Of a DNA stretch of 64,000 nt, positions 10,797 through 55,936 are shown one piece after another. Origin of the DNA: Ectocarpus siliculosus. Its lineage: Eukaryota > Sar > Phaeophyceae > Ectocarpales > Ectocarpaceae. The translations under genes and the position numbers were made by a program. The notes beneath the pieces are model-generated. The model had not been told where the DNA came from. It saw only the letters and a program-made list of their open reading frames with translations, and ran no database searches. Position 1 is the first letter of the stretch, and every line of letters begins with the position of its first letter. The DNA is taken from positions 655,510 to 719,509 of the forward strand of contig FN649739.1 in the NCBI GenBank assembly GCA_000310025.1. Direction: 5' to 3'.

Positions 10797-10869
10797 CCTC
10801 TCCTGGAAACGGGAGAATGAGGGTGCTTGCCTGTGCTCTGGCAATCTGGGCGACTGGCGTAGCCAACGG
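10797..10869 (+). CDS. Possible early exon of the first LRR gene (cysteine-rich end)
   Basis: A frame reading NEGACLCSGNLGDWRSQ ends at a good donor (AACG|GTGAGC) in phase 2, the phase the downstream LRR exons need. The paralogous block has the matching YEGVCLCAGTLGDWRSE and the same donor at 51259/51260. The CxC pattern resembles the end of a small disulphide domain. The acceptor (CATCAG at 10796) is not conserved in the other copy, so the left border is uncertain. Confidence 0.28.
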
Positions 10870-12060: not shown

Positions 12061-12640
12061 TACTCCGGTCCGGTGCGATAAATATCCAACTACTGTGCGG
12101 AACAAACGAATGTCCGTGTGCACCCTGTAACTATATTCAATATTTCATTATACTATCGGATTCTCCACTCGCCGCAGGCCTAGGCGCTCCTTGCATACAC
12201 ACGGTTTCCCCGGGATTTCGCGTTTCCCTTTTTTATCACTCGCGAAACTCATGACCTCCCTCTCCCATTCGACGTCCATGTTCCAAAAGGAATCAATTCG
12301 TGCCTGGACCCCCAACATGAAAGCTACCAGTGCGCGTCGGGCGCGACGTACATGTGAGCACAACAATGCACAGGCGAACCTTGGCGTTTCGGACCTCTGT
12401 ATAAAGAGGTACACATTTGTTGGTACGTCCCATGGAGCGAGAGAAGCATGTAACGAAGAGTGAGGAATAGCGCTCCAATTTCCACGTAGGCTGCACCTCT
12501 GATAGTGGAGGTGCCGACTTGTCTTTTCAACTGGGGTCAACCCCTGCTTCCCGACGTGTCCGTCGGACACGTTTTTCTCCACTCTGCCTTTTATTACATG
12601 GTTCACGTCACGTTCGTCCCACCACGGCCCGAGCGAACAG
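12061..12640 (+). other. Region between the 5' block and the first recognised exon
   Basis: No exon could be supported. At the equivalent place in the second array an F-type cap exon occurs (52365-52428), but no F-like sequence was found here. The stretch includes an imperfect inverted pair, GTGTCCGTCGGACAC, near 12558. Confidence 0.4.
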
Positions 12641-15600
12641 TACACTGACGGAAGACTCCTGTGGAGATGGGTTGACTGACTCGGACGTAGATGACGTGGC
12701 GGCGTGCTTCGACAACACAGGACGGACCTCGGTCACCAAGATGTGAGGAGCGTCTGGGATATGGCACACTCTTCACGTAAATAGCCATCTGTTGTAGGTG
12801 ACGTATTCTTCGTCGCGAGTCCCCGCAGGCAGAGTATGTCGATGCAGAAGGTTCGGTGCTAAGTTCAGGAATCAAGATGTCAGCGTAGGATATTTTCAAC
12901 TGCTCGGAACCAGCCCAGGGGTTTCAGGGCTTCAGACGTTTCCGGCGGCTGCTAGATATCCTGCACAAACTCATATTCCCGAGGGATTTTTTCACACACA
13001 GCACACACCTTACCCGCGCAGGACTTGCAGTCGAGTGGACAAGAAGAATGGTTGCAGTAGGCTAGTGGTTTGATCATCAAATACCCATTGTTGACACTTA
13101 CCCTCACTGCCAGCCCAACGAGGGCTACCGCAAACGGAAACGTATTCGCTAATGTGGAACTTGTGTTTTGTGATCGCTGACGGTACACGTGGTGTTCCGG
13201 TGTCGCAGGTGTCGCAAAATGACTTTGTAGGGTGCCTCTTCGTGACCAACCATATGTTGCCGTTGATTTCCACATTTCTTGGGATGCGCACCTTCATCAC
13301 TCCCCGATTCTCCGTCTGCTCTATGCGGTATTAATCAGCGATCTGAGTGGCAACCAGCTCGCTTCGCTTCCAGCGGGGCTTTTCAACGGTCTGGATGCAC
13401 TGCAAGAAATGTAAGCTGTGTACCGCCTCGTGTTCCTTGCTTTCTGTGCAAATCATTCACCTGAGCTACACAACTCGACCTGCTTGGTCGAGAGTACAAA
13501 GCTCCATCGGCGAGAGCACCAATAATTGTGGGTGGGGGGCACCCGTGCAGTGGGCTAATGGTATGACAGTCAAATGCACGTTCTTGTTTCACAAGCTCAT
13601 TCCCGGCACAACGGGAGCTACCCCAACGCGAAAGCTTTCGTTGATGTGAAAGGTGTGCGTAGTGTTCGCTGACAGTTCACGTACTCTTCTGATGTCGCAA
13701 TAGCTTGTTTGGGTGCCTCTTGGTGACAGACAATATCTTGCCGTTGATTACCACATGTTTTCTGGATGCTCACCGTCATCCCTCCCTGTTGTGCGTTTAC
13801 TGTGTGGTTCAAATCAGATATCTGAGTTCCAACCAGCTCGCCTCCCTTCCCGTGGGGCTTTTCAACGGTCTGGATGCGCTGCTATCAATGTGAGTTGTGT
13901 CACACCTTGGTTCCTTTCGGTGCAACTCATCTACCTGAACTACACAACGCAACCCGTTTGTTCTAGAGTATCGATCTCCATCCACCAGAGTCCCGCATCG
14001 TGTGGTCGAGAAGCACTCTTGCAGCAGGCTAGTGATCTGACCGTCAAACGTCCGTTGTTGTTTCCCACGCTCATTGCCCGCACGGCGGGAGCTACCGCAG
14101 CGCGAAAAGCTGAGTTGGCGATCGCTGACGGTTCTCGTGCTGTTCCGTTGTCGCACCAGCTTCGTAGGTTGCCTCATAGTGACAAAATATTGAAACCATC
14201 TTTTCTGAACACGCACCGTCGTCCTTCCCCCTTTTCCTTTGCTCTGGACCGCGCAAACCAGCCTTTTGCATGACAACCAGCTCGCTTCGCTCCCCGCGGG
14301 ACTTTTGGACGGTCTGGATTCGCTTGTATTTCTGTGAGTTGTGGTATGGCTTGTCTTCCTCTCGGTGCAACTCATCCACCTGAGGTACAGAACGCAAGCA
14401 ATGTTGTTCGACGGTGTTGAATTCCATCGGCGAGACCACTCAATAGTGCTGACGGCGAGAACACCTGAGGTAGGGTAGTCGTTGACTGTCAGATCCCGTC
14501 TGTGTAACCTACGCTCACCCTCCGCACATTCGGAGCTTCCGCAACGTGAAAGGCTTTTGCTGGCGTGTATCTTATATTTGGTGATCGCTGATGGTTCGCG
14601 CCCTGCTCACGCTTTTTGGGGCGACTCTTGGTGACACACGCACTGTGTTGCCGTTGATTCCCATCTATTCGTATCGCAAACCGTCGTCCCTCCCCGTCTT
14701 TTATCTGATTGGTGCGGCACAAATCAGCTCTCTGTATGGCAACCAGCTCACTTCGCTCCCGGCGGGACTTTTCAACGGGCCGGATGGACTGCAATCTCTG
14801 TGAGTTGTGTGGCGCTTCGTCTTCCTCTCGGTTCAACTCATCCACCCTAGCAACGTGTCCATCGGTGAGATCACCACATAGAGTGGACAAGAAGAGCGCC
14901 TGCGATTGGCTAGTGGTTGGTCGTCGACTATCCGTTTTTCCTACCGACGTCCACTCCCCGGACCACGGGATCTACCACAACGTGAAAACCGTTCGCTGAT
15001 GCAGGGCGTGTTTCGGGTGATCGCCATCGTTTTATATGGTGTTCTGATGTCGCATCAACTTTGAACAGTGCCTCTTGGTTATATGTTATGCTGTCTCCAC
15101 GGACTAACGTCTATTCTGAACGCGCACCATCACCCCTCCCCGATTAATCGTCTGATGCGTGCGGCACAATCAGCTATCTGAACGACAACCAGCTCGCTTC
15201 GCTCCCCGCGGGACTTTTCGACGGTCTGGATTCGCTCTCTATTCTGTGAGTTGTGTGGCGCCTTGTCTTCCCCTCGGTGCAACTCATCCACCTGGGCTGC
15301 AGAACCTGTTCGCTCGACGGTATCGAACTCCATGGCTCGAGAAACGCACCGAGGGGACGAGAAGAAGGCTTGCAGTAGGCTAGTGGGATCAACGTCAAAT
15401 TACCGCTCTTGATGGACCACGGGAGTTACCTCTTTGCCGAATGCTTTCGGTGATGCGGAATGCGTGTTTGGGGGTCGCTGACGGCTCACATGCTGTCCCC
15501 GTGTCGCACCAGCGTGGTAGGGCGCCTCGACTCTACAGTAGTGTATTAGCTGAAGAAAGACATTTCGACTGTCTGTGAACATGCAATGAGTACTCGTCTG

Positions 15601-16733
15601 CGATGAAATTTCGTTCGTCTTCTTCTGGCTCGGGCTCTTGCGATTGTCTACAGTAGAGCTGCGCTGGAACGTTCTTCATGCCTATTTCACCGCAACAAAA
15701 CAGTGTTGAAATACATCCCGCCAAGCCCCAGTCAGCGGGGAATGCATGCCCAGAGCGAATAAAGTTCACCTTATTGTCGAGCGTTCGCGTATCAGGCCTG
15801 TGATATGGGTTTACTTCTGAACGTACCACCCCAACGGTTGCTTGTAGCGAGAACAGCGCCTTCTTTCATGGAATAATATTATCACAGTCGTGGCGGCAAC
15901 TGAACGTGATGGGTGGCGAAACGAAGTAAAACACGTGTTAGGTCCCACTGGCTACACCTCTCCGGCATGAATCCCTTCATACCTGGGCGCTATAGTTGAT
16001 TTCATTGGGACTGGCACCTCGTGTCTCGGATTGTAATGTTTCCATATTGGGGCGGGACTGTTATTACGACACCCTCAATCTAACAGATTGAGGCATCATT
16101 TGGCAAGGTGAACCAACTCATTCGTGACGGTCGCGGTGTGTCGTGAATCGTTCGAGCATTGATTGCGTTTGTTGCCTCGCCCTCGCCCAATGTACCTGTC
16201 TCTGACGTTCGTTTGCTTCTCTTTGCTCCATACAGGAATTTGCGGGGGAACGACGGGTTACAGTGCCTACCCTCGTTGACCGGGTGAGCAACCGTCGGTG
16301 GTGCGGCGTCTTTTGAGAAGCTTTTCGTGGCACAAGTCACAGTAGAATATGATACCGTTGTTTCCGTAACGTCATCTGCATATTCATACGGCAACCATGG
16401 AGCGCATTCCTGAGGAGCTAAATGTTGCGCTGGCTACTTCCATGGCCGAGGGTCCGCGGCGCGCCTCGCATCTAGAGGGGCGCCCTCCTGTGTACGGAAT
16501 ATATTCTCCCCGAGGATATGATAGATTTCCGCAAGCGAAGCTGATGTCGGCTTGTAGTATTGAGTAAAGCTAGCAAGCTTTGTCTTGCGGACTTGCCATG
16601 GACAGGAGGTCAAACGTCCTCGCCTCACCTCAAGATGCCCTTCTCTCTTCGCTGCCTTCTCCATGTTTCAGATCACCTGGTCTCACGGACAAGCTGTACC
16701 TCCCAGATGGCTTTGAGGAAGGCGTCATTTGCT
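12641..16733 (+). CDS. Module 1: D cap, five one-LRR exons, C and B caps
   Basis: Exons: D 12641-12742; LRRs 13339-13410, 13818-13889, 14262-14333, 14728-14799, 15174-15245; C 16236-16283; B 16672-16733. LRR exons are exactly 72 bp, phase 2-2, with consensus LxxNQLxSLPAGLFxGLDxLxxL. D reads DSCGDGLTDSDVDDVAACF and then GRTSVTK. It is four residues longer than the other D exons and more diverged (102 versus 90 bp). C (NLRGNDGLQCLPSLTG) looks like a final half LRR entering a disulphide cap. B (SPGLTDKLYLPDGFEEG, then CC) is 62 bp, one codon shorter than its relatives. LRR exon spacing of 444-479 bp reflects duplication of whole exon-plus-intron cassettes. Confidence 0.8.
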
Positions 16734-19011
16734 GTGAGAAACGTCAAATAATATCCACTCTCTTACAGCTAGCTTCGGTTGGCAGAAACGTTGATGTTTG
16801 GTAGCAAGAGGTCAACTTACTCCTCTGTGAACACAATAGGTCAGAAATACATTTTGAATATTCCTTTATCTTCGGTTCCTTAGAGGAACATGGTTTGCAC
16901 GGTAACGCAGCGAGGGAGCACTGCCGAGTCCAGTCAGTACATCAGTTCGGCGTACGGGGCGCGGGAGGGTTGAACACGCAGTAGGGAGACCCGTAGGCCC
17001 GGCGTACGAAGCAAGCAGGCGGTTCTCGCCCACGACGTAGAGAAAACAAACCAAAGAAAACCATCATGTCACTAACCGTGCGCAACAAAGGCACTTCCAC
17101 CGGCCACTGTGAGCCACTCGCTGTGGGAACCTTGCGCTTCACGCATCCTTTGTCGGATAATATATTTCATACTCCGGAATGATCCCGCAGCTCCATCGAC
17201 GCCGCCTACCATTGCCCGTCGGTCCTGTATGGCACGGTGTGACCGACACCGCAGCATTCAACGGGCACGGCCGATTCCGGTACAAGTATGATTTTCCGCA
17301 TGGGTGGGTCACGATGAGTCGTTGCGCACTCCTGGGCACCGTACGTGATGTTTGAAATTGATCATGATACTGACTCTGTCGTTCCGCTCTCCTGCGTCTC
17401 CTTGACAAGATCCTCCTCTACTGCTGTTATTGCCTTTCACAGCCTGTCCTTCTCTAGGGGACGATGGGGCATGCGAATCTGACGAATCATGCACTCCTGG
17501 CACGGATGGCTACATCTGCAGCACCAGTAAGTGGGTAGCAATCCTGCAGATAGCAATGCCGGTTGAGGCGGGGAGTGTTGCGGAAAGCCTCTGCGCCATG
17601 ATGCACAAACCGACTGGGCGGGTTGTCCGGGACCGCTAATATCAACACCAATATCCCACTTTCGCTCGTACACACCCCTTTGGTTGACCTTTCAACAGGC
17701 ACTTCTAGGATCCATTCGTTTCATGAAATCGGAGCAACCGCAGCCTCGAGCTCGTCGTGTTGAACAACCTCAAGTTTCACTGACACGAGATAATTCCGTA
17801 TTCCTACCTCCCTCCACACCGCACGGTTGGTGTTGTCTTTGGTGGCGACGCCAGCAAGGAACTCGTGCTTCGACCCAGAGTATGACCTCTACGGATGCGA
17901 GCCTGGCAGCACCCAAATGTGAGATCACGGCATGATAGGTGCCCCATGAGCTTTTGTAGAGTCATGGAGAGGTTGATCCACAGCAGTCGAATGGGAAGGC
18001 CGTGTGTTGCAAAATACTGGTACAGGTGATTGGATATGTGGGAATGCATCAAAGTCGTGGTAACCACCACACACAAATCCGAAGGCAGGAACCTTCCCCT
18101 TCAGCACTTCCTGGTAGCATCATCGCTTGAAGTGATTACCGGCCATCTTCCCGATGCCAAAGCTTTGCAGTTAGTGAAACACTCATCCGGCCCTACATGA
18201 ATCGTGCGAGATATTCCGCTGAACTTCCGCTCTTCCACAGCGATCTCGATAACTGCGGAATCGGGGACGAAGATTTGGAGGACCTCCGGGAATGCTTCGA
18301 AAACGTCGGACGCGCATCGGTCACATACATGTAAGGCTTGGCGTGTTATAACTGTGATAACATCTTCCTCTACGAACCTAGCCTGGGGATGCTGTCCATC
18401 ACCGTCAAGGCGTAGCTATTCGGCGGCATGCACCACCACCTGAGTCGCTTTTCCGTTGGCGATCTCTCATCCGCTCTCCGCCCATACAGCGCAATGAATT
18501 CGAACAGTTTGACGGAGCTGCCGGGAGGTGAAAACGGGCTTTTCGCTGGGTTCGAGAGCCTAAAAACTTTGTAAGTGGCTGTTGCCCGGACTCGTCGAAT
18601 AGGTCGTCAGCGGGAGTGGCATGGTTTCCAGAAGGAACGCCGTCTTTGTTCCATCGCCCCCAGTACCCCGGCCTAGCAATGGCGACAACGGGATCGGTGG
18701 TATATTTGCCGCAATGCACGATCAATGGATCATCGAATCATCTTTCGATATTCGGTTGCCGAGAATTATGCTTTCTGCATTGTTTAGAGCTGTAAGTACT
18801 ACCAGCCCCGCAAGTCGATCGGACATCATCGCGGGTGGCATGAAATTGACATGCCAGTCAACACCTCCATTGTCGTTGTTGCGTGAAATATCTTGATCTA
18901 CGCCACGTGTGCTGTTCCACTGTTTTCAGAGGGCTCGTTCAAAATAACATCAAGACGCTGTATGCGGACAGCTTCGAAGGCCTGGGGGGGTCACTGACTT
19001 CGCTGTGAGTG

Positions 19012-19056
<45 letters not shown>

Positions 19057-22000
19057 CTTCACATTAAAAACCGTTCCGATCTCTCTCTACCCAGTACCTT
19101 CGTATGTCCGTACTGATCCAACACTCGACGCGGTCGATTCCCGTGGTCACAGGTTAACTTACCCTAAAAAGGTACACTCAAATAAACTGGCCCCGAGGGG
19201 TCCGCAAGTCAATAGAAATCAACGACAGATATTCTGGAATCCTCCACTCCCTCTTCGCGCTATGCGAGGTATCAACTGAGACTAGCAGTCACTATCTATC
19301 ATGGGCCGGAGAGAAAGAGGTACACCCTAGTGTATGAGAAGATAGAAATGGAAGTCCCATTCGTCGCGTGTATTTTGTGCTTTTGACTCCCCTTTGCTTG
19401 GGTTCGGTCCTACCATTGATGTCGACATCTACGCTTGCGTGAACGTGGTCAAGCTGTTACCTTGTGTCGGCGCATCGTATCAGTTTGTTGTTGCGGTCAG
19501 AAAGAGGACAGCGTATCCGTCGAACAGAGATAATAACCTGCGATTATTTGGTGTAACAGTTCGGATTTGTAGTTTCATTTGTTGTTCAGAAACTCGGGGT
19601 CACGAGGGGAAGAAATTACAACCTCTCATTTCATTGAGGAGAGAGCACGTAGTAGCCGTAGGAAGTTGAATAATGAGCGGAAGCAACGGAGGGTGCGAAG
19701 AGAAAGAGAGCCAGAAGTGGTCGCTCAACGTCGGTGGCTGCCGCCGTATTTGAACATGGGGAGAGAGGGGTATGTAGGGTTAACGTCGCGCCTCGCAGAC
19801 AATGCGGCTGGCAAGACGATGCGCGTTCCATGTGCCTCTCTTCCCAACATGTGGCGTAGGAACCGAATAAATAATGAAGCAATTCGACAGAAAACAATAA
19901 CTGGTCTAATTGCAACCAAACAGAACAATAGCCCCGCAAGCAAACGTCCGTCGCTGAGAAAAAGCACGATTTTGTGCTGAATGTCACAGCGAAAGAACAT
20001 AAAACAGTTTTTCAAACTTAATGAGCAATGATGATTGAGGCTCTCAGAAGCTCCCTCGGAAAGACCAAAGGATATGTTTCGGGTTCTCCACGAGAATCCG
20101 ATGCACTCCTAGCGTCATGTTTCGTCGTCTCTCGTGGAGAATCAACTTTGTATTGAAAAACGTAGGAGAAGATTTGTCGTCGTGCGATCCACCGGGGCAA
20201 CCCTGGAGCAAAATATGAACTTTTTCCCTATCGCGCTCAATCCACCCTTTCTTCCATTCCATGCGCGCGACATCCTGTGTGCGTTTTCCCATGCCATCTT
20301 GTGCGTTTTGACTTGTGGTGGTGGTGTGAACACCCAGCTATTTATATCAAAACCAATTGACGACGATCCCCGTGGGCTCCTTCGACAACCTCGCTGGGCT
20401 ATATCGGTTGTGAGTATCTCTCCTTTCGACATTGTTGCACCTGGGGGTTAGGACTGAGATACGTTGGTTTCGTGAGGGACGTTGTTGGCGATACTTGAGG
20501 CGCATGTCGTGCCAGACTGAGTGCAGGAGAGCAGCGCTATATCTCTAGCCGTAAACGACGCCTTTCGAATACGTCATGCGGGGGGCGCTCCGCACCCGAT
20601 CCCGGGCATTTGGCCAGTAGACTCAATCGGGCGCTAGTTTTAGCAGGACAGGTCGGGAGCGAGCAGAAACCTGTGTGTACAATTTATTCGGCTTACCTGC
20701 ACCCACCCCCGGCGCAGCGGGTGTCAGAACCCGTCGGGGCACCACCACCGGATGATGAAGATTCACTTTTGATACAATAATGGCATCGAATATCCTTGGG
20801 GTTGGGATGTCTGTCGAAATACCTCGCCTGCCCAGACGTTTGTCACAAACCCCTCGTAACTTCCTAAAGGGATGTACTGTATGTCGGAGTAGAATACCGA
20901 ATAATAATACGTTCGTGCGCTCTGTCCGTTTCTCTCCCATATACCATGCGTAGGCAGCGTATCTGTAGCGTATTGGAGAGGGCAGCATTTCTTGGGAGTC
21001 ACACACTTCTACAATAGTCGCCATTAAAGTCGTAGGCACACGGTTCACTACCTCACCAATACTCTCATGTGATCGAACGGTTTCCGCCCGTGGCTAACTT
21101 TTGTTGATTGTGATCCAAACTCAGGGCACTCTACGATAATGATTTGGCGTGGATACCTGCGGGGGTGTTTCGCGGCTTGGGGGAGCTCCGCCAGTTGTAA
21201 GCGCACCAAACCCTTCGACTCCGGGTGCATTTTCGGACGTACAATGTTCCAGTAGTGAAGCGTTGCACAAGGCCGTCCCAGTGGCGAGTAAGGAAGCATG
21301 TCGTAGACAAGACCAAAGCCCACAACTAAACTACATCATTGAGCGCTAGAATACGTGCCACAGAAAGTACAGCGGTCGAGAAACATTGGGAGGAAACTCA
21401 TTCGTACGGCACACATTTGTGACATTAGGTCGATGCTTTGTCGTCATCATGTGAGCGACTATTGTATATCTTCTTTCTTTACGAAATTCAGCTTGGACAT
21501 TCTTCAAACGATGGAAACTTCATGGTGAAGCGGCCTTCATTTCGCACTTGTGGCTGCACGATGATCACATGGGCGTCCCCTCACATCGTGGGGCTTGAGT
21601 GTATCCGGGCTGCAGGCGCCAAACCGCCTGCGAGCTAACTGTGGTAGACGAATCCACACTGTGTTTCTTGCGGTCTTGAGTGTTCAGCTCACGTGCCCCG
21701 CTCGGCTCATTGTTCTTTGCTATTCTCTGCCACGCTACAGATACTTATCTAATAATGCCCTCTCCACGCTCCCTGCCGGCCTCTTTGACGGATTGGGAGA
21801 ACTCACTTCTTCTCTGTGAGTATTGGATCTCACAATGTGCAACTCTCGGCGAACTCTTGTGGGGGTTGACTAACAACGCTCTTGGTCGGCGTAGTCTTCT
21901 GTTTCGATTCCTTCGCAAGGGTGACAATGCCGCATGTAGGTTCAAGTTTTCGTTCCGTGGAAGCTGGAAGCAATCGTAGACGTCCTGGCACTCTCTCTGC

Positions 22001-34000: not shown

Positions 34001-37000
34001 CGGGATACTATCCATCACCGTCGTAAACGAGGTTGAGCTATTCGGCAATATGCACCACCACCTCAGTCGTTTTTCCGTTGGCGATCTCTCATCCGCTCTA
34101 CGCCCATACAGCTCGATGAACTATAACAGTTTGACGGAGCTGCCGGGGGGAGAAGACGGGATTTTCGCCGGGTTCGACAGCCTCAACACTTTGTAAGTGG
34201 CTATTGCGCGGACTCATCGAAAGGGTCGTCAGCGAAACGTGGCATGTTTTTCAGAAGAGACACATTCCTTATTCCGTTGCCTGCAGCACCCTAGCCTAGC
34301 ATTGGGGAAAAGGGAAACGGCTGTAGTTTCCGCAACAGATGCTCAAACGAGTATCGCTCATATTGTTGATGTTCGGTTGCCGAGAAATTTGCCTCCTACT
34401 TTGCTTAGAGTTGCAAATACACTCTTCCATCAAGGTGGCCTGCCGTGGTACCAGGCCCACAAGTCAATCGCATCTCATCGCGGTGGCACCAAATTTACCT
34501 AGCAGTCAACACCTCCACCGGAAATACCGCTTGTTGCTTGGAAATAACTTCATCTCCGCCATTGTGTGCTGTCTGGCTGTCTTCAGAATGCTCAATCAAA
34601 ATAACATCGAGACGCTGTATGCGGAAAGCTTCGAAGGCCTGGGGGGGGCGCTGACTTCGCTGTGAGTGGCTGGAGCGTACGCGAAGATAGAATTGGGAAG
34701 GCCCTAACCATTTCCTCCACCGTCTATGACCCATTATCCCCACATGCGTCTGTGCTGTTGACTACCCTTTACTCGGCTTCTGTGCTACCATTGACTTCGA
34801 CATCGATGCTTGCGCGAACGTGGTCAAGTTGTTAGCTTGTTCCAGTACATGGGATCAGTTCGTTGTTACGGTCAGGAAGTGGTCGCGCGGAACAATCAAA
34901 CCAAATACCCTCTCGTGCAAACATCCGTCGCTGAGAAAGAAGGCACGATTCTGTGTTGAATGTCACGAAGAAATAGAATTGAACAATCTTCCAACGTTAG
35001 TCAGCAATGATTGATTTGGCTCTCACAGCCCCCTCTGGAAGATTCATAGTCACTTTTTGGGTTCTTCACGAGTAACCGATGTATTCACTAGCATCATGCT
35101 CCACGAATAGTTATCTTGCATTTGGTAAGCAGACGAGAAGGTTGGTCGCCACACAATCACCGGCGCGCTCGGGAGCAAGGTGAACACTTTCCAAGTCGCG
35201 CTCAACCCATCATTTCTTCCATTCCATGTGCGCGCCATCCCGTGTGCACTTGATCGTGCCATCTACGGCGACAAAAAAACGATATTGCGGTGGTGAACAC
35301 ACCCACAGGAGCATCATTCAAAGCCGGTTAACCACGATCCCTGTGGGCTGCTTCGACAATCTCGTTGGGCTGCAGACGATGTGAGTGTATCTCGTTTTCG
35401 TATGGTAGCATCCGAGAGTTCGGGCTGAGATAGGTTGGTTTCCTACGGGACAACTTTGCCGATACTTCAGGCGCATACCGTGCCAACCTGACCGCAGGAG
35501 GGTCACATACAAGTATTGCGGATGTCTCACGCGGGTAGCGCCCGATCCCCAGGATTTGTCAACAGAATCACCCGCCCTGCCCAGTTGTTGGTCACACCTT
35601 GAAACTGCCTAAACGCGATGTACAGTACATCAGTGCACAATACCAGCGAAGGACATATTCGAGCGTTCTCTCCGCTTGTCTCCCATATGCTGCGTGTGTG
35701 GTAGCGTTTTGCAGCAACGGTGGATGCGTGGCTGACCACGTCAGGTCTCAACACCTTTTGAGAGTCAAACACATAGGCAATGCTCCTGGGCACACGGTTT
35801 GCACTACATACCTCGCTATCATGCCCATGTGATAGCGCGTTTTCCGCCCTATGACTGGCTTCTTTCTTCATTGTGCTACGAATTCAGGACGCTTTACGGG
35901 AACGACTTAGCGTGGCTACCTGTGGGAGCTTTCCGCGGCTTGGGGGAGCTCGGCACGTTGTAAGCGCGTCAAAGCCTTCTATGCGTACACTGGCTGCATT
36001 ATTGGACGTAAAACATTGTGAATCATTGACATGCCGTTCCAGTGGCGAGTAAGGAAGCATGTCGTAGAGGTAACCATAAAAAATACAGCTGTCGAGTTTA
36101 GAATATGTGCCACAGAATGTACATCAGTCGAGAAACTCTGGGGGGAAACTCCTTCCTGTACAGGCATCTGTGGCATTTGGTCGATGCTTTGTCATCGCCA
36201 TCTGCGCGACTTTGTCGTCATTGTTTACGAAATTCAACTTGAAAAACCCTTGGATGGTTGGCACCTTCATTGTGAAGCGACCTCGATTGAGTACTCGTAG
36301 CTGTACGGCGATCATATGGACGTCCCCTCACGTCGTGGAACTTGACTGTATCCGCATCACTCGGTCTGCCGGGTTAAACTGTCTAGACTAAGGCATTGCC
36401 ACATTGTCTCTTTTGGGGCCTTAACGTTCAGCTCACGGGTCCCGCTCGGCCGTACATTTTCTACTCTTTTCTGCCACGGCTGCAGATCATTGGCTGGAAA
36501 TGCCCTCTCCACGCTTCCTGCGGGCCTCTTCGATGGCATGGAAGGCCTTACTGTTCTGTGAGTGTTGGATCCTTACTAACGTGTGCAACTCCCGTCGACA
36601 TCTTGGGAGCGGCGAAGAAAACCGTTCTTCGTCGGCGTACTCTTCGTTTTCGATTCCTTCGTAAGGGTGTTGATGACGCAGCATGTAGGTTGAAGCTATT
36701 GTTCGGGGGAAACTGTACGAGTTCTGGCAGTCTGCGGCTGCTTGTGGTAAGAGCTCCATTGTCCGTTGTTCTTGCAGGTCAGGAAAACAAGAACCCCCAA
36801 CTACTTCTTACTGTATATTGGACGAAGAAGTAGCAGTTTGCCACCATAACGAAGTAGGTTATACGTCGGGACACCTGCACTCGGAGATAGGTGGGCAAGA
36901 TACTGTGTGTGCGTCCAAGCATGTTCCACAGTGCCAGTCAGAGGGGCACCACAATGTCAGACGAACGCTAAAGATTATGTTGCTCCTCGGCGAAACTATC

Positions 37001-40000
37001 CAGCGGAACCACCAATGTTGGCGATACGTTTTTCAAGCAGGACCTGCCAGCAGAATTAGCACCGCCAATTGCGATTGATCCTTGTACACACTGACAGCCA
37101 CATGAATTCAACCATGGCATATTTCTCACCTTTGTTGCCAAATCGTTCCTTCTAAACACTGCGCTGTCCTACGGCAGCAATCTGAGCGAAAACGAAGACC
37201 TTCAGTGCGTACCGTCAATGGAAGGGTGAGCTACTGACTCGGTTTTCGCCGTGAGTGAGGTTGTAGACAGAGTTTCCCGGCCGGTAGGCGTGAGTGGAAA
37301 CTACGTGGACCAACTCGGTGTGAAATGAAATGCCTGTGACTGAAGTCGTTGGAGACTTGTCTAACAAAAACACAATGAATATATGTAAAAATAGAAGTAA
37401 TTACCCGAGAATGCAAAAGAAAGGCACGCGAACCAAGTTGCCACCAGCATCGTGTTCCTCTCTCGCTGTCCCAGGTCCCCCAATTATTCTGCGTCTGAAT
37501 GGTCCCTCCCGGAAGGATTTGGCGATGGCGGCATGTGTTGTGAGTGCACCACTTCTTCTTCCATTATTCGGAGACGAAGCTGTTTGAGGTGTAGTGCTAC
37601 AGAAGGCAATGCCGCACGACGAAAAGATCAGTCAAGATTGGCCACCACTTTGCGACCGTTGAAATGCCCGTATTGATTCCACTACTCTCGTTGTTGTAGT
37701 TTGTGGCACATAGCGCAAATTCGAAACCGATAAAATCATCGCTCGAGGAGGCCGGTTTCCCGTACCGACGCGTTAGCGCCAACCTCCAGATCCGCGTACG
37801 GCCTGAAGGGCAACCGCTACATGTTTCTGATCTGCAAAACATGAAAATGAGGTATACCGCTGGAGATTGTATGTTCATCGGGTGCTATCCGGTACTATTC
37901 TCTGCAAAGATGAACAGTACCTGACCGTCGTAGCTGATCGTGGCAAAGACACTCCATGATGAACAACGTAGCCGTTCCTTGACTCTCACGTTCTGCAGCA
38001 TTCCGCATAGTATTCCCAGCCGGGTAACCTGCGATATGTTGCCGCCCGAAATCTCTGGTTTAGCAAGTGTGCGTGCTGTAGTGGCAGTCAATTCTGTCTG
38101 ATGTTTTGTGGCCTCTGGGGAATGCATCCGTAACGCATGGAGAAACCGCGGGCAGTCAATGCATGAATTTGGAGAAGGCCCCGGGCGTTTCAACACGCAG
38201 AAGAAAAACCTTCGACATATGAAGGACCGGCGTACAAACCAAGCGACTCTCGCCCACCACGCAGAGCAGAAAAATATAATAAATCGCCATCTCGCTGACC
38301 GCTCGCAACACAGGCACTCCAATCAGCCACATTCAGCAACACAATATGTGGCAAGCTTGCGCTGAACGCATCCCTTTCCGGACGAAAAATGAAACTATCG
38401 CAAGCTGGTTAATCCGCTTCGTCTAAGCCGCCTAACGATGCTTCCCGGTGCTGTAAGCATGGAGCTTCCGGCACGGTGGCATTCAACCGAGATGGCGATT
38501 CCGGTAACAAACTTACCGCCACATGAGCAGATCGCGAAAAGTCGATGCACTCTGACACCTTGCCTTACGAAACAACTATATGTATTGTAATTGGGCCTGG
38601 CCCTGTCGTTTCATCCTCCTGTTTCATCTGAAGAGCCTTTTCTGCTGTTGTTTCCTGTGACAGCTTGTCCTTCTTCTGGGGACCACGGGGCATGCGAATC
38701 AGACGAATCTTGCTCTCCGGGCATGGATGGCTACATCTGCAGTACCGGTAGGTTCGCGTTAGCTGCTTCAATACCCTCCTCATGCTGAGCTGGATCGTGC
38801 TCTACCCGCAGCAAAGCCTAGACTATGATAAAAAAACAATATGTCGATGTTTGCTACAGCACGGTGGTCGTTGTAGTCCCTCAACCAACTCACACTAATC
38901 AATCCGAAGTACGACGTAGCCCGAGACCCGGAAAACATACTCCGAAAGTATCAGTCCTTGAGGGGGTTAGAGTGTGCTGCGGGGATCGTAGACACACACT
39001 GCACACTCCCGCTGTTTGTACAACCGTACAGCCCGCACACCAGTGACGCAAGTACCTCCGGTGGTTGTGGCACTTCGGTTTCTTCTAGACCACCATATTC
39101 AGTTCGTGAGATCCGCGTCATCCGATGGTTGCCGGAGCAGGTCAGTCCGACATCCCGTCTTACCTCGGGTGCTTCTCGGACCCTTTCGACAATCGCGTCT
39201 TCGAGTGGAAGACTTCTACCGCTGCCATGACCGCAGAGGTGGGGATGACCGGTCGATGGCTGATAGTGTGTAGATATCGCTGGCTGCATACGATGTCAAC
39301 GCGTAGGTGTTGTGCGAGATGGTCTGTACTCTTCGTGTTCAAGATGCTGTGAGAGCGGTAGTTGTTGCGGATGTCGTTTGGTAGCCGCACAGGAGTCATC
39401 AACGGTTTGAAACTCGAGTTGTGACCCACGACACCCAGCCTCCCCGTTTGCACTGTCGGCGGACATGCCTGTCACTGCGCTCTTCGCCCCCTGATGCGGA
39501 TTACCGACCGCTTTGCTGGCATGCATACGACCGTTGAACCACAGGTCTGCTCCGAGCTCTGCTCCAACTCGGCCTTCTATGGCACCCAGTATTCGACAGA
39601 GGTAAGATGTCTTACATTTGAAAACGACGGATCCATTCATACCCCGATCAACATTGGAGGTGACGAACGAGATCGTGATACCAAATGGTGCCGGTATTTG
39701 GAATGGTTTTTGCAGGATTTCGTGAATAGTTTTATCCTTGGTCGTCGTGCCTCTCTGAATCTGCAAACGAAAGGCGGTTTTCAACTTTTCAACCGTGCAA
39801 CTTAGCCATCTTCAAGTCATTGAGGTTGCGCAATTCCCGCAATACAATAAAATTGCCCAGCTGGTTTACGGGGCCTCGGCAAGGAAAAAGGGTAGATTGC
39901 CATTTCTTGCTCTGGTCAGCTTGCCGTTGCTCGAAGAAAAACAAACATCCCCGAGGCAACCGGGAGGTTGGGATGGGTTATTCTTGGCTGGTTATTGACT

Positions 40001-43000
40001 CCTTGACAAAGTAACTTTGCGTTTGCCCTCTCATCGTTGGAGGTCCTATTCATCGTCGGAGGTCGACGCTTCCCTCTCCAGATTATAACGGACTGCATAG
40101 AAGAAAAAATACGCACGTTGGCACGGTTTCCTACCGGTCGGAGCGCGTCTTTCACGACTTCAGACCGCGTGTGCAGCCGTACACACCATGGTATCCTTTT
40201 TTTCTTTCTCGACTGTCGCTCGGTGGCGCCACCACTGCTATGCGTACAGCACCTTTCTCGTCTTGTGCTTGGTAGCGTACAACCCTTCACGCCGCGCGCG
40301 CAACCACGACACGCAAACCTTTATTCCCCCCTCACGCCGTCCTCTTGCCCCCGAATATTACAGTGCTGGTGTGGGGACAACGTCGGATACGCCGACAACG
40401 GCCCCGGCGTCTGCGATATGTCCTGCTCCGGCAACTCTGATGAGATCTGTGGCGGATCGTACGCGCTCTCCATTTACTCGAACGAACCCAATTACCTTGG
40501 ATGCTACTCCGACCCAGCCGACAACCGCATTTTCGAGCTGGTGTCTTCCTCCGTCGACATGACGGCCGAGGTGAGGGAGGAACAAAGCCAGATTCGATAC
40601 GTCTCGAGTCGTAGGTTGAGCTGTTGATGTGGGCTTGTGTCGATGTCACATGGCTTCAAGCTCTGCCTGGTACTGCTGTTGTCTGTTCGTGGTCTGTTTG
40701 TCCTTGCACAGCTGTTGTCACGCGCGTTGGAAATCATCGTTGGACCAATACGCCACCGCCCCCCAACAAAGTTCCACGCCGTTCCCTATTCGCTTGTCTC
40801 TCTTCCTTCGATCGACCATTGGCTTCCCTCAAACGTGACCAAACGGCCACAGGTCTGCTTGGCCCACTGCAGCATGCATCAATACTACGGAACTCAATAT
40901 TCGATAGAGGTGAGACTTCTAGCGTAGATGCGCGAAGAGAGGAAGCTTTTCGCGTGGTGTCAACTTTGTGCTACTGTAATTTGGTGTCGGAACTGCATGA
41001 TTGGCATTGAACAATCACGCCTATGGCCATGTTTTAGTGGGCTTTCCAAGTCACCGACGTGCCTTGGATCACGTTGGTCTCGTACGCTGTCTTTCGCGGC
41101 GCTGTGCGTCGGCTCGAGATATATATATGAGTTGTGGCTTGTGCGCAAGCCGTCTGCCACGCACATCGTAGTAAACATATGTACGTCCCGCATGACATGG
41201 CCGTCGCACGGTTCGGAGGCGACGAGCGGATGGGGGCCTTCCTCGACTACACTCGTGCTATGGAAAACGTTGCCTGCTCTCATGCACCAGCGATTGATCA
41301 TTCGAGTTGTTTAGTCCCGGTCAACCTCTCTCGCTGGCATCTTGATATTGTAGGAGACTCGTGCTTCCACCTACATGGTACGCACTACCCATTCCAGATA
41401 CCATCATCGCAGAACGGTCGTGTTTAGTGGTGGCTCGGCAATGCTTGAGAAAATGCCGTGGTCGCTCGGTAACGCAGATTGTCGGACCGACGTCCGTTGT
41501 TTCTCCAGAGCTCTGATCATCATTGGACCTGCTTGCTTTCACGCCAGATCTTCCAGTCTCTAGGCCTGCTGCTACAAGGATAGCCGTTCCCTGACGCCGC
41601 ATCACCATGGTATCTCCCCCCACCTTCCATTAATTACGGCGACGAAAACTGCGTAGCATCTCTAACCCTCTTGGCGACTGCACCCTCTCCCCCGCTTTTC
41701 GATACTGCCGAACGCAACAGTGCTGGTGCGGCGACAATGCCGACTACGACGCCAACGGTGCCGGCGATTGCGACAAGTCCTGCTCGGGCGACTCCAGCGA
41801 GGTTTGCGGAGGCTCCTACAGCATGAGCGTCTACAAGAACGTCGACGTGGATACTGCTGTGGAGTCCTACCACCTTGGCTGCTACTCCGACCCAGCAGAC
41901 AACCGCGTTTTCGTGCAGAACGAGTCCTCTGACGCCATGACCGCAGAGGTGAGCGGGAAAGCGACAGAGGCGTGGATGACTATAGTTTACTCGTTGACGT
42001 GTACTTCCAGAACACTGTCTGCATGTTGTTGAATAGTATGCATGAGGTTAAGTCGGTCTGGTGCACAAGTTTTCTAGTTGCCGGTGTCGATACCGTGATG
42101 TCATCCCCCGTGAACTGTCAGAGGTTCTCAAAATCAACGGGGGGCCAACTGTTGCTGGACACGGAGCCTCTAAACTGCTCTCCGGTGGTGTGCCCTAACC
42201 ACTCCTCCCCCCACTCGTCGTGATGATCGATGCTTGTGGAAACGCACAAATTCTCAACTGCTCACAGCTCTGCGCATCGCTATGTGCCGGGTCGGCCTTC
42301 TACGGAACGCAGTACTCTACGGAGGTGAGGACGTTGTGACAGTTTTTCTACTGTAGTCTCAGGACAATACCGTTCGGATGGATTCGGGTCTGTAGACCCC
42401 CCTCCACTACAATGCCTCCCATAAAAACCGCCGGTGAGACCTGAGACGTTTGGGAAGGCTCGGGACAATCTTCGGTCTTGCCTACCCACCTGTGACTTCG
42501 TCCTGGGGCGTTCCGTGTTGGCCGGGTGTACTTATCTGACCATGGGCATTGAAAGAAACGTAGTTCGGCAACATAGTTCATTTTTGGTGTTCGTTGTCGG
42601 TACTGCAGTTGTTGCTGTAGTCGTGCTACAGTAGCTTCTAACACCAAAAGCCAAAAGGGAGAGCGCCATCGGCGTTCCTGCGGAAATGAGTTCTAGTTGC
42701 TCTGTTTCCAAATTGCCGGTGTGAACCATCAAAAATTCGTCTTGTACGGCAAAGCGTTCAATATAATCAAGCAACATTACAACGCAACGAGCGACAAAAC
42801 CACCAAACCCGAGCCTCACGCATCAGCAGTAAGGGGACCTTTGCCCGGTTCCTCTTGTCTTGCTTTCACAGTTGTATTGGTTCCCTCAATGTGGCGCGTT
42901 CCAAAGCGAGAGGTCCGCGGTCAAGTACTGGTGTGTGCGGGGAGTACCCCGGCCAGACGGACAAAAGCAGAAACAATAGTTGGGGGGACGTTCTGCCCTC

Positions 43001-44754
43001 GGGATACATGCTCTATTTTCAGGCATGGCCTCATTACATGCCTCTGAGAACACGCCGGGGCGTTCGTCAGCACAACGAGGTTGCAGGCACCCCCAGTGGT
43101 GTTTTTTCTCTTGGCGACATCGCGGTGCTTGGATCGGAAGCGTGTTCTTCTCCTCGAGCCTATCGCCTGAGCTGTTAATGACGTTCTCGTGCTCCGTGAT
43201 ATGTCCTGACACCAACGCACCCATCAATACACCTCCCTCATTTCACCCAGCACTACACATTGTGCGAATATCCTTTGTACACCTTGACACGATGAAACCC
43301 GCTGTCCTCTCTGTTTGTGCCACCCTTTACACCTCACTGTACCATCCCTTCGAAACCAGTGCTGGTGCGGTGACATCAACGCCCCATACTCCGTCAACGG
43401 TGAAGGCGTTTGCGACATGACCTGCTCGGGCAACCCCGAAGAACCCTGCGGGGGGTCCTACAGCATGGATGTCTATGCCCACGACCCCTCGTACCTCGGG
43501 TGCTTCTCGGACCCCGCCGACGGCCGCGTTTTCGTTCGGGAGAGTTCTACCTCGGCTATGACGGTGAAGGTGTGCGAATCGCGACAACAAAACGTTGGTT
43601 GGCCGTTTCTAGGATGTTCACTGGTGAATATCAATACCGCGCATTCGTAAAAGTTGTGCTTTGGTTGTTGTACTTGTTTTCCCGAACATTGATATCGAAT
43701 GGTGTGCTTAACCAGGAAGCTTCACCCATGCTAGCCAATTCGTGACCCCGCTCCTCCACGGTCCTCCCTTTCGATTTGGTCCCGACGACTTCTCTCCTTG
43801 CCCACCCGGACACTGACCATTGCTCGTGCACGCACGTACCACATGTACATGACCCAACCACCAGGCCTGCGCCACGCTATGCACCGGCTCGGCCTACTAT
43901 GGAACCCAGTATTCTCAAGAGGTATGATTTCTTGTATAGAGTGCGTGTCGAAAGAGTGTCAATCGTGCGCTATCGGGCAGGTTTTGTACAAGGAGCGTGG
44001 TAATCGGATCGCGTCGAGCGTTTTCGGGGGCTCTGGGTGCCTACCGCCGTCCCCGTCAATATTGCAACGTCTCTTGCAAATGATTCAGTTTCCATAGTTT
44101 CTTGTCCGTCTTCGATGAATCTTAAAATGCCTCGTAAGCGTGCGGAGTCATGACTCATCTATTCTCTGGTGAATTATATATGTGGTGCTTTCACCCATCG
44201 TATATTTGCTTCTGGAAGCCAAAGAGGAACCTAGAAGTCTGATACTGGTGCCGTCTAGGTCTTCTGCTGCTGCCGTCTGTCCCTCACGAAGCCGGTGATA
44301 TGTATGCCACAGAATTGGAATGTGGCGTGTACAAACAACGTGAGTCGATTTTTTTCAACCAAAGGATGACGAATCGCACTAACGAAGCACAACCCCGAAG
44401 TGCGGCTTGATTTGATCCTCGCGTTGTCCGGAACCCGCTGACGGAAAAGCTACACCGAAAATGTAGCCACTAGGGTGTGTCTGTCACGTTCCTGTTGTCC
44501 TGATGCCGGCGCTGCAGCCGGCCTCCAACAAAACTCACCGGTTTTGTGGAACGTCGAACATTATGGTTGTCATCTTCACTACGATGACATCCATGCCGTC
44601 TCCACCCGTTCAATGCTGCATGAAACAGTGCTGGTGCGGCGACAACGCCGACTACGATGCCAGCGGGTTTGGCGTCTGCAACATGTCCTGCTCGGGAAAC
44701 TCCGACGAGATGTGCGGCGGCTCGTACACTATGTCGGTGTACCAAAACATCTAA
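12641..44754 (+). CDS. Multi-module leucine-rich-repeat / WSC-domain protein gene (5' exon not identified)
   Basis: The model joins 52 exons: module 1 (12641-16733), module 2 (17443-22686), module 3 (23831-30957 plus an alternative exon at 32298), module 4 (33022-37539), then an E cap exon and nine WSC exons ending in TAA at 44752-44754. Every exon has an AG acceptor and a GT donor, and adjacent phases match. The spliced sum is 4198 nt, giving a frame of ~1398 residues with no stop. Content is 24 LRRs in four blocks separated by cysteine-rich caps, then four WSC domains (putative glycan-binding, eight-cysteine pattern). No transmembrane or cytoplasmic domain is seen, so a secreted or wall-bound protein is likely. 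Brown algae are reported to evolve LRR receptor genes through one-repeat-per-exon shuffling; this locus fits that mode with a different partner domain. Splitting into two to four transcripts remains possible. The start codon lies upstream, perhaps in 9515-12060. Confidence 0.7.
17443..22686 (+). CDS. Module 2: E-F-D caps, five diverged LRR exons (G-K), C2 and B2 caps
   Basis: Exons: E 17443-17526, F 17855-17918, D 18241-18330, G 18490-18570, H 18930-19004, I 20338-20409, J 21125-21196, K 21741-21815, C2 22087-22134, B2 22622-22686. E (CPSLGDDGACESDESC, then DGYICSTS) has four cysteines. F is RNSCFDPEYDLYGCEPGST. D is LDNCGIGDEDLEDLRECF plus GRASVTY. G carries a three-residue insertion (LPGGENGLFAGF). 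H is SFEGLGGSLTSL, I LTTIPVGSFDNLAGL, J LAWIPAGVFRGLGEL, K LSTLPAGLFDGLGEL. C2/B2 (DLQCVPSLAG; WNLPEGFGDGGTCC) are a subtype distinct from module 1. The order and subtype of every exon recur in module 4. The H donor is followed 7 nt later by a SINE-like insertion. Confidence 0.8.
19012..19305 (-). mobile_element. SINE-like retroelement with (CAA)n tail, inserted next to a splice donor
   Basis: On the minus strand it starts CCCATGATAGATAGTGACT and ends GTGAAGACAACAACAACAA, the tail being ~14 triplets (a TTG run on the plus strand at 19012-19056). An opposite-orientation copy lies at 55651-55935 and a diverged one at 57990-58212. The paralogous intron at 34662 goes straight from GTGAGTGGC to GCGAAGATAGAA, so this is an insertion after the module duplication. 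The short length and simple-repeat tail suggest a SINE or the 3' end of a LINE. No convincing polymerase III box was found. Confidence 0.65.
23831..30957 (+). CDS. Module 3: E-F-D caps, nine LRR exons, C and B caps
   Basis: Exons: E 23831-23914, F 24282-24345, D 24665-24754; LRRs 25114-25185, 25925-25993 (69 bp), 26615-26686, 27052-27123, 27515-27586, 28485-28556, 28956-29027, 29425-29496, 29895-29966; C 30493-30540; B 30893-30957. The first two LRRs (FTSLAAGLFDGFDNI; LTTLPLGLFDGLASL) are diverged. The other seven match the module 1 type and sit at 437-471-bp spacing apart from one interval widened by a solo LTR. C (SLRWNDGLQCLPSLFG) and B (LFLPDGFESGGECG) are subtype 1, as in module 1. Phases agree throughout. 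This is the expanded counterpart of module 1: five LRR exons against nine. Confidence 0.8.
27845..28345 (+). mobile_element. Solo LTR with 5-bp target-site duplication inside an LRR intron
   Basis: A 501-bp insertion begins TGTTGGAAAG and ends ACCCCACCA, flanked by the direct pentamer GGTTC at 27840-27844 and 28346-28350. The neighbouring cassette introns lack it (for example CTGACGGTTCTCGTGCTG at 14124 and the matching place at 28790), so the empty site is visible within the same window. It contains ATCAATAAATATG, a possible polyadenylation signal region. No internal domain or second LTR is present, so the element has probably been reduced by LTR-LTR recombination. Confidence 0.82.
30893..32362 (+). 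CDS. Two tandem B-type cap exons, probably mutually exclusive
   Basis: B at 30893-30957 (LFLPDGFESGGECG) and a second B at 32298-32362 (LLADDKLFLPDGFEDGGTRC) are each 65 bp, entered in phase 2 and left in phase 1. Using both would add 130 nt and break the frame into the next E exon, so only one can serve in a productive transcript. The second is closer to the B exon of the other array (57784-57848). Both have normal acceptors and donors. Either this is mutually exclusive splicing, or one exon is left over from recombination. Confidence 0.6.
31380..33021 (+). repeat. Intron carrying a duplicated conserved block
   Basis: The block that precedes E-type exons elsewhere occurs twice here (about 31850-32110 and 32540-32940). 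Its recognition words are TTCAACACGCAGTAGGGCAA (31897) and TTGAACACGCCGTAGGGCAA (32581), followed by CTAGGCCCGGCG-like text. Single copies lie at 16905-17300, 23340-23690, 38140-38560 and 58400-58700. Apart from the second B exon no coding sequence is seen. Confidence 0.65.
33022..37539 (+). CDS. Module 4: E-F-D caps, LRR exons G-K, C2 and B2 caps
   Basis: Exons: E 33022-33105, F 33449-33512, D 33857-33946, G 34112-34192, H 34587-34661, I 35309-35380, J 35888-35959, K 36486-36557, C2 37178-37225, B2 37475-37539. Each matches its counterpart in module 2 in subtype and phase, and in length except K (72 against 75 bp), at an offset of about 15.1-15.7 kb. In exon I the usual LxxN asparagine is replaced by serine (IIQSRLTTIPVGCF) and a cysteine has appeared. 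G reads LPGGEDGIFAGFDSL. C2 is LSENEDLQCVPSMEG and B2 WSLPEGFGDGGMCC. Introns are alignable with module 2, confirming segmental duplication. Confidence 0.8.
38664..44754 (+). CDS. C-terminal part: E cap exon joined to four tandem WSC domains and stop
   Basis: Exons: E 38664-38747 (phase 1-1, donor GTAGGT); WSC exons 39141-39238, 39545-39601, 40364-40570, 40853-40909, 41721-41948, 42268-42324, 43360-43569, 43865-43921, 44629-44754 with TAA. The G|GT codon across E and the first WSC exon gives glycine. Three exon types rotate: YLGCFSDPADNRVF...AMTAE; a 57-bp exon ending YGTQYSTE; and CWCGDNADYDANG...SCSGNSDEVCGGSYSMSVY. The third type is fused to the start of the next domain in one exon of 207-228 bp. 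WSC domains are cysteine-rich modules (yeast wall sensors, fungal and algal extracellular enzymes) thought to bind glycans. The protein ends ten residues after the last CGGSY motif, with no hydrophobic tail. Confidence 0.9.
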
Positions 44755-45500: not shown

Positions 45501-45524
45501 CTCACTAATAGAAGTTGAGTGACA

Positions 45525-46310: not shown

Positions 46311-46344
46311 ACCAAGAACCGCGCGGTGGGTTCGCCGGAAAATA

Positions 46345-51902: not shown

Positions 51903-51934
<32 letters not shown>

Positions 51935-51965
51935 GGGAGCAGCAGAGGCGTCAGCAGCAGCAAGC
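51903..51965 (+). repeat. CAG trinucleotide repeat
   Basis: About ten uninterrupted CAG units followed by broken ones (GAGGGAGCAGCAGAGG). Copy A has only a short CAGCAGAGCAGCGGCAG at the matching place (11720), so the tract expanded after duplication. Confidence 0.85.

Positions 51966-55901: not shown

Positions 55902-55936
<35 letters not shown>

What the first reader, a model, noticed from the sequence alone, without database searches (positions are those of the whole stretch)
12641..44754. A single frame-consistent LRR-WSC gene built from four interchangeable cap-LRR-cap modules
Fifty-two short exons read from the sequence have compatible phases from the first D cap exon to the stop at 44754, and their lengths sum to one open frame (4198 nt). 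The architecture is [cap-LRRs-cap] x4, then four WSC domains. It combines two extracellular recognition folds in one probable secreted protein. LRR exon shuffling in brown algae is known to me for intracellular ROCO and NB-ARC/TPR-type genes; an extracellular LRR-WSC version may be undescribed.
Basis: partly seen in the sequence, partly recalled or inferred. Interest (0 to 1): 0.9.

Follow-up and report, generated by a model that had tools for sequence, protein, structure and literature searches.

The report
Algal LRR-WSC gene fused in intron
A brown-alga-like genome carries one predicted 54-exon gene for a secreted protein that joins four leucine-rich-repeat recognition modules to four WSC wall-binding domains, and the intron where two gene families were joined can still be read in the DNA.

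Summary
I add a signal-peptide exon (10817-10868) and a cysteine-rich exon (12290-12353): 54 exons, 53 GT-AG introns, 4314 nt, 1437 aa. Pfam finds LRR_8 and four WSC stretches. The four modules alternate A-B-A-B; each is a class 1-1 cassette. The strongest evidence for one gene is the junction. Of 12 WSC paralogues examined, 11 have a signal-peptide exon, a phase-1 intron, then WSC. Here that exon is missing, yet the E4-to-WSC intron is the 3' part of that WSC intron (E=7.7e-42), and LRR-side homology stops at 38753. So the gene looks like a chimera made by recombination inside a phase-1 intron. Its tandem neighbour keeps another ending, a Ser/Thr/Pro-rich exon with a GPI-like tail. Concave sites of the 12 A-type repeats have dN/dS 2.57, other sites 0.34. 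No transcript was available. Extracellular LRR+WSC is known in animals (polycystin-1); in brown algae my paper searches found none.

The parts
10817..10868 (+). Signal-peptide exon (MRVLACALAIWATGVAN-G), phase 0 to 1; predicted start of the gene
   Evidence: Only exon passing the signal-peptide filter in 9500-12290; sister exon MRVFASALALWATGVAN at 51211-51262
12290..17526 (+). Module 1 (type A): H1 12290-12353, D1 12641-12742, LRR exons 13339-13410, 13818-13889, 14262-14333, 14728-14799, 15174-15245, C1 16236-16283, F1 16672-16733, E1 17443-17526
   Evidence: Exon phases and GT-AG; Pfam LRR_8
17855..23914 (+). Module 2 (type B): H2 17855-17918, D2 18241-18330, LRR 18490-18570, 18930-19004, 20338-20409, 21125-21196, 21741-21815, C2 22087-22134, F2 22622-22686, E2 23831-23914
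24282..33105 (+). Module 3 (type A): H3 24282-24345, D3 24665-24754, LRR 25114-25185, 25925-25993, 26615-26686, 27052-27123, 27515-27586, 28485-28556, 28956-29027, 29425-29496, 29895-29966, C3 30493-30540, F3a or F3b, E3 33022-33105
30893..30957 (+). F3a exon, phase 2 to 1, keeps the conserved Cys; cannot be used together with F3b
32298..32362 (+). F3b exon, phase 2 to 1, Arg in place of the conserved Cys; alternative to F3a or a relic
33449..38747 (+). Module 4 (type B): H4 33449-33512, D4 33857-33946, LRR 34112-34192, 34587-34661, 35309-35380, 35888-35959, 36486-36557, C4 37178-37225, F4 37475-37539, E4 38664-38747
38748..39140 (+). Junction intron, phase 1: LRR-family homology ends at 38753; from 38754 it is the 3' part of the first intron of WSC-family genes. 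Breakpoint at about 38753-38761
   Evidence: nhmmer E=7.7e-42 over 38754-39140; genome DNA search: matches of E1, E2, E3 end at 38753, WSC-side matches start at 38761 (one weak match, E=3e-5) or later
39141..40492 (+). WSC domain 1 (exons 39141-39238, 39545-39601, 40364-40570 first part)
   Evidence: Pfam PF01822
40493..41846 (+). WSC domain 2 (40364-40570 last part, 40853-40909, 41721-41948 first part)
41871..43488 (+). WSC domain 3 (41721-41948 last part, 42268-42324, 43360-43569 first part)
43492..44754 (+). WSC domain 4 (43360-43569 last part, 43865-43921, 44629-44754) and stop codon 44752-44754
51211..64000 (+). Tandem paralogue (related gene, not part of this one): signal-peptide exon 51211-51262, then modules A and B; runs past the window end to a Ser/Thr/Pro-rich exon with a GPI-like tail (L013 up to position 840)

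Best explanation
This is one gene for a predicted secreted, modular recognition protein. It arose by joining two gene families inside a phase-1 intron. The 5' part comes from a family built as signal peptide - (H-D-LRRs-C-F-E)n - Ser/Thr/Pro-rich stalk with GPI-like tail; the E exon of an internal-type module was joined to the middle of the first intron of a multi-WSC gene, leaving out that gene's own signal-peptide exon. Because signal-peptide, LRR-module and WSC cassettes meet at phase-1 introns, the join kept the frame. Inferred function: the LRR horseshoes, whose concave residues vary fastest, bind varied ligands, while the WSC domains hold the protein in the polysaccharide wall in place of a membrane anchor. 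Shown from sequence: exon chain, phases, domains, junction, other endings of paralogues, selection pattern. Inferred: splicing in vivo, secretion, wall binding, ligand recognition.
For: 54 exons, 53 GT-AG introns, one open frame. Pfam LRR_8 and 4 WSC stretches. Of 12 WSC paralogues examined, 11 have a signal-peptide exon (MHLLSLALPxLLLGVxI type) and 12 of 12 show no LRR or cap exon at E<0.02 upstream of their first WSC exon; our gene has no such signal exon in the 393-bp gap. Junction intron matches the WSC first intron, E=7.7e-42, next best in the window 5.5. The 300 bases after E1, E2, E3 are 80-85% alike, those after E4 38-45% like them. Of 41 matches to the 620-bp junction in the genome, only the locus itself spans both sides. 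E4 shares 20-23 of 27 residues with E1-E3 and 15 of 27 with each of three terminal E exons. Three paralogues have the GPI-like ending. L016 strings modules in one frame. Modules 2 v 4: dN 0.158, dS 0.410 (211 codons); WSC pairs dN/dS 0.16-0.45, 6 of 6. Concave sites of 12 A-type LRR exons dN/dS 2.57 (bootstrap 5-95% 1.3-6.25, 297 of 300 above 1), rest 0.34; top pN among all 33,649 five-site sets. WSC as a glycan binder: a fungal three-WSC protein binds beta-1,3-glucan (PMC7816849, passage).
Against: No transcript or protein evidence. The fusion was found once in this assembly, so it could be a private or dying gene. Exons are not always better conserved than introns (third LRR exon of modules 2 v 4: 68.1%, next intron 68.3%). 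F3b has lost a conserved Cys. Sugar binding was not tested and no solved structure matched the WSC query at E<=0.1. The selection figure rests on 12 of 24 LRR exons of one gene, which are related and may exchange sequence. In L016 the H and E parts score weakly (E 0.3-7) and no F was found. At least six further WSC first-exon places were not fetched.
Confidence: 0.78

Rival explanations
1. Two or more separate genes: LRR-module genes ending near 38747 and a WSC gene starting near 39141, read together only because phases happen to agree.
For: There is an in-frame ATG at 39125, 16 bases before the WSC exon; the WSC genes examined elsewhere stand alone.
Against: No signal-peptide exon found in the 393-bp gap; the ATG at 39125 starts no hydrophobic stretch (best 0.56); no GPI-like tail exon found for the LRR part in 38747-51200; the gaps after the four E exons are 328, 367, 343 and 393 bp; L016 strings modules in one frame.
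Confidence: 0.1
2. Assembly error: an LRR gene and a WSC gene wrongly joined.
For: The fusion is unique in the search; no reads were available.
Against: The window has no N; the junction keeps splice sites and phase and falls at the start of an intron; the WSC side is only 73-85% identical to the other copies over the matched parts, so it does not duplicate another locus found.
Confidence: 0.05
3. Pseudogene or exon reservoir: a non-expressed array that feeds LRR exons to other genes, as Teng et al. 2024 suggest for non-ROCO LRR arrays (PMC11378527, section 15).
For: Duplicate F exon, one with a conserved Cys lost; many near-repeats.
Against: No stop or splice-site loss in 54 exons; dN/dS below 1 for modules 2 v 4 and WSC pairs.
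Confidence: 0.12
4. The protein acts as a signalling receptor through a partner or a missed membrane segment rather than as a wall-held recognition or structural protein.
For: The tandem paralogue has a GPI-like tail; Ectocarpus is reported to have transmembrane WSC proteins (PMC6347293, passage); the highest 19-residue hydropathy is 1.62, about at the usual cut-off (cut-off recalled).
Against: That stretch (residues 104-123) is an ordinary LRR consensus; the last 60 residues reach only 0.09; no kinase or other signalling domain.
Confidence: 0.15

Closest known systems
Brown algal ROCO (LRR-ROC-COR) genes with shuffled LRR exons (Teng et al. 2024, PMC11378527: abstract, sections 11 and 15 seen; Zambounis et al. 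2012 not held, seen only as cited)
   Same: One LRR per exon, 72 nt (18 of 24 here), phase 2; concave sites with signs of diversifying selection.
   Different: Here a signal peptide, cysteine-rich caps on each module, no ROC-COR, and WSC domains at the C end.
Non-ROCO shuffled-LRR genes of Saccharina japonica (15 sequences, most with LRR only; PMC11378527 section 15)
   Same: Possibly the same kind of LRR array; sequences not seen.
   Different: Caps, WSC or secretion are not mentioned in the section read.
Brown algal LRR receptor kinases (PMC8307928, passages)
   Same: Extracellular LRRs in brown algae.
   Different: No kinase in our protein.
Multi-WSC secreted genes of the same genome
   Same: Same kind of WSC exon borders and first intron.
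   Different: Own signal peptide found in 11 of 12, no LRR modules in 12 of 12 examined.
Polycystin-1 (animal PKD1; PMC9672506 and PMC5318412, passages)
   Same: Extracellular LRR followed by WSC in one protein.
   Different: Short LRR block, one WSC, then lectin, PKD, REJ, PLAT and channel domains.
Amphioxus BbLcLRR (PMC8211107, one passage)
   Same: Capped LRRs plus WSC.
   Different: Has a transmembrane region; single LRR block.
   Same: WSC combined with another extracellular domain in brown algae.
   Different: CAP, not LRR.
Lamprey variable lymphocyte receptors (plan recalled; LRR matches to VLR chains)
   Same: The tandem paralogue's capped LRRs, stalk and GPI-like tail look alike.
   Different: No evidence here of somatic assembly; our gene lacks the tail.

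Membership tests
Pfam WSC (PF01822) | Profile match over cut-off | tested here: met
   E=1.7e-61, 204.9 bits against cut-off 27.8, 4 stretches
LRR (LRR_8, PF13855) | Profile match over cut-off | tested here: met
   191.2, 169.5 and 80.3 bits against 27
Brown algal shuffled-LRR exon class | 72-nt phase-2 exons, one LRR each | tested here: met
   18 of 24 LRR exons are 72 nt, the other six 69, 75 or 81; phase 2-2 in 24 of 24
ROCO | ROC-COR GTPase domain | tested here: not met
   No such Pfam match in the spliced protein at E<=0.001
LRR receptor kinase | Kinase domain | tested here: not met
   No kinase match
LRR receptor kinase | Transmembrane segment | tested here: inconclusive
   Highest 19-residue hydropathy 1.62, inside an LRR; no dedicated predictor was available
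Polycystin-1 | PKD, REJ, PLAT, channel domains | tested here: not met
   Only LRR and WSC families matched
GPI-tailed capped-LRR family of this genome | Same caps and module order | tested here: met
   H, D, LRR, C, F, E exons in the same order in the tandem gene
GPI-tailed capped-LRR family of this genome | Ser/Thr/Pro-rich, GPI-like last exon | tested here: not met
   None found in 38747-51200; genome search lists the tail at 3 places, none in this gene
Wall-binding WSC protein | Binds wall polysaccharide | not testable with these tools
   needs a binding assay

The most novel reading that the evidence does not exclude
Brown algae have an extracellular, capped-LRR recognition family that diversifies by exon and module duplication and by swapping the anchor (GPI-like stalk or WSC wall-binding array) at phase-1 introns; alternative use of the 24 frame-neutral LRR exons and of F3a/F3b would give one locus many wall-held binding specificities, an extracellular counterpart of the ROCO and NB-ARC-TPR systems.
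Probability: 0.3. Interest if true: 0.85.

Novelty: new variant of a known kind. Interest (0 to 1): 0.62.

Why it matters
The brown algal candidate immune receptors described with shuffled repeat exons (ROCO and NB-ARC-TPR) are intracellular types (recalled). A secreted version that links variable LRR faces to WSC domains would give these algae a wall-held recognition layer. The locus is also an unusually clear record of exon shuffling: relatives of both parent families, the intron and the breakpoint (about 38753-38761) can be seen in one genome, and the same capped module occurs with at least two endings. It would be a separate, algal case of the LRR plus WSC pairing known in animals.

Tried and rejected
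LRR regular expressions on unspliced frames found none of this gene's exons; the strict one found two LRRs of the downstream gene. Homology and phase were used instead. A bacterial promoter/terminator scan of 38600-39200 gave 0 promoter-like and 1 terminator-like site (mean 0.3 in shuffles) and does not apply to a eukaryote. No solved structure matched the WSC query at E<=0.1. Structure prediction was not run: by its stated rule the spliced protein is not letter for letter from the window. Relatives outside this genome were not searched: I ran no scan of viral, prokaryote, phage or plasmid collections. Four equal modules were rejected for A-B-A-B: C+F exons of modules 2 v 4 are 89% identical, 1 v 3 71% (F3a) or 81% (F3b), across types 51-60%. 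For the selection test I used 12 of the 24 LRR exons (five of module 1, L3.3-L3.9 of module 3); dropped: L3.1, L3.2 and all ten of modules 2 and 4. YN00 failed, so only NG86-type values are given. The signal-peptide filter passed 10 of 12 paralogues; the exon in L010 was found by similarity; in L011, at a contig end, none was found. Of the WSC first-exon places, 12 were fetched; others listed (C10:4194230, C4:2655457, C41:210425 and 215308, C30:409971, C21:2675443) were not. My notebook gives 0.18-0.45 for WSC dN/dS; the values make it 0.16-0.45. On rechecking I withdrew the claim that L016 shows an F part.

Full report
Setting. The window is C14:655510-719509 of a 189-Mb, 492-contig genome. 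It is brown-alga-like: 150 EsV-1-7 (PF19114) matches, a lower bound because 150 of 880 candidates were scored, with 0 of 14 control genomes matching; and 102 WSC matches, 150 of 244 candidates scored, again 0 of 14 controls. That EsV-1-7 domains mark brown algae is recalled.

Observation. I rebuilt the exon chain from the sequence. Upstream I add a signal-peptide exon (10817-10868) and an H exon (12290-12353) in matching phase. The full model is 54 exons, 4314 nt, 1437 aa; 53 of 53 introns are GT-AG, median 398 bp. Pfam confirms LRR and four WSC stretches.

Module anatomy. Each module is H (phase 1 to 2), D (2-2), LRR exons (2-2), C (2-2), F (2 to 1), E (1-1), so a whole module is a class 1-1 cassette that can be inserted or lost without shifting the frame. 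LRR exon numbers are 5, 5, 9, 5; 18 of 24 are 72 nt. Modules alternate A-B-A-B: C+F exons of modules 2 and 4 are 89% identical, 1 and 3 71-81%, across types 51-60%. In the A modules, 12 LRR exons sit in repeats that include intron sequence, 9 of 11 start-to-start spacings being 437-479 bp, so repeats grew by tandem duplication of exon plus intron. Module 1 has divergent H and D exons (52-63% against the others, which share 84-95%). The next gene downstream (signal peptide at 51211) is an A-B version of the same plan.

The junction. Twelve WSC-family first exons elsewhere in the genome were fetched with about 3.1-3.9 kb upstream; at least six more places exist that I did not fetch. None of the 12 shows an LRR or cap exon there at E<0.02. 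Eleven of 12 have a signal-peptide exon, phase 0-1 (10, one more); in the ten measured, the intron to the first WSC exon is 539-944 bp. In our gene the intron between E4 and the first WSC exon is 393 bp and no such exon was found in it. A profile made from those ten introns hits the 64-kb window at 38754-39140, E=7.7e-42; the only other hit at E<=10 has E=5.5. On the other side, homology to earlier modules runs to 38753, six bases into the intron, and the 300 bases after E4 are unlike those after E1-E3. In a genome search with 38640-39259, matches from E1, E2 and E3 end at 38753; WSC-side matches begin at 38761 in one weak case (E=3e-5) and otherwise near the end of the intron or in the exon; of 41 matches only the locus itself spans both sides. 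The cap exons found (36 matches) outside C14 lie on C16, C25, C4 and C33, none beside a WSC match listed (150 of 169 matches or so are shown there, so this is not exhaustive). I read this as recombination inside a phase-1 intron, with the breakpoint placed to within about ten bases.

What the fusion replaced. Three paralogous loci carry, after an E exon, a Ser/Thr/Pro-rich exon that ends in a hydrophobic GPI-like tail; a genome search with that tail lists these three places and no other at E<=0.1. None was found in 38747-51200. E4 is of the internal type. So the ancestor probably ended in a surface anchor, and this gene carries WSC domains instead. GPI anchoring is inferred from sequence shape only.

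One protein. L016 on C16 has LRR-C, then H-D-LRR-C, then H-D-LRR-C in one 575-aa frame without an intron. D, LRR and C are clear (best E 1.1e-8, 1.2e-7, 0.0022); H and E are weak (0.3-7) and F was not found by profile, though the H-D part matches our H4-D4 at E=1.6e-7 in the genome search. An in-frame ATG at 39125 exists in our gene but starts no hydrophobic stretch.

Selection. Modules 2 v 4: dN 0.158, dS 0.410. WSC pairs 0.16-0.45. In the 12 A-type LRR exons the five concave positions have dN/dS 2.57, other positions 0.34, and no other five-position set of 33,649 has a pN as high. The positions were chosen from LRR geometry (recalled). Teng et al. 2024 report positively selected concave sites in ROCO LRR exons.

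Function. A fungal protein of three WSC domains binds long beta-1,3-glucans (PMC7816849, passage), and yeast Wsc1 binds wall polysaccharide (PMC11333212, passage). This supports, but does not show, wall binding here. LRR relatives among solved structures are animal ectodomains such as LRRC15, LGR5 and variable lymphocyte receptors.

Literature. Searches that would show LRR with WSC in brown algae listed no such protein; I looked at passages of seven listed papers and sections of one, the rest only as listings. The library lacks most subscription papers, so this is weak evidence of novelty. WSC joined to PR-1 domains in brown algae is described, so WSC is already known as a combined domain there. 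Animal LRR-WSC proteins exist.

Verdict. The best account is a real chimeric gene, formed in a phase-1 intron, for a secreted, wall-held LRR recognition protein. Structure and origin are well supported; splicing, location and function are inferred.

Noticed in passing
51211-64000 and L013 1-840: Tandem paralogue: signal peptide, modules A and B, Ser/Thr/Pro-rich exon with GPI-like tail; two stretches seem to hold two LRRs in one exon (56074-56217, 61545-61688), as if an intron was lost.
   Followed up: partly
30893-30957 and 32298-32362: Two F exons in module 3 that cannot both be used by phase; candidate mutually exclusive exons or one relic.
   Followed up: partly
6325-6624 and 9173-9472: Identical 300-bp direct repeats 2848 bp apart upstream of the gene, possibly the two ends of a recent mobile element.
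   Followed up: no
3252-3551 and 3936-4235: 300-bp direct repeat, 94% identical, spacing 684.
   Followed up: no
L016 4769-6496: Intron-poor paralogue of the capped LRR modules with Pro/Thr-rich linkers between modules in one 575-aa frame.
   Followed up: partly
L020 8588-9091 (coordinates on the reverse complement): A capped-LRR paralogue followed by a different Cys-rich frame with a hydrophobic tail: perhaps a third kind of ending.
   Followed up: no
L018 around 8255: E exon without a clear donor after it; perhaps a decayed member.
   Followed up: no
genome C10:4.17-4.24 Mb, C21:2.54-2.68 and 3.53-3.57 Mb, C139, C244: Clusters of multi-WSC genes.
   Followed up: partly
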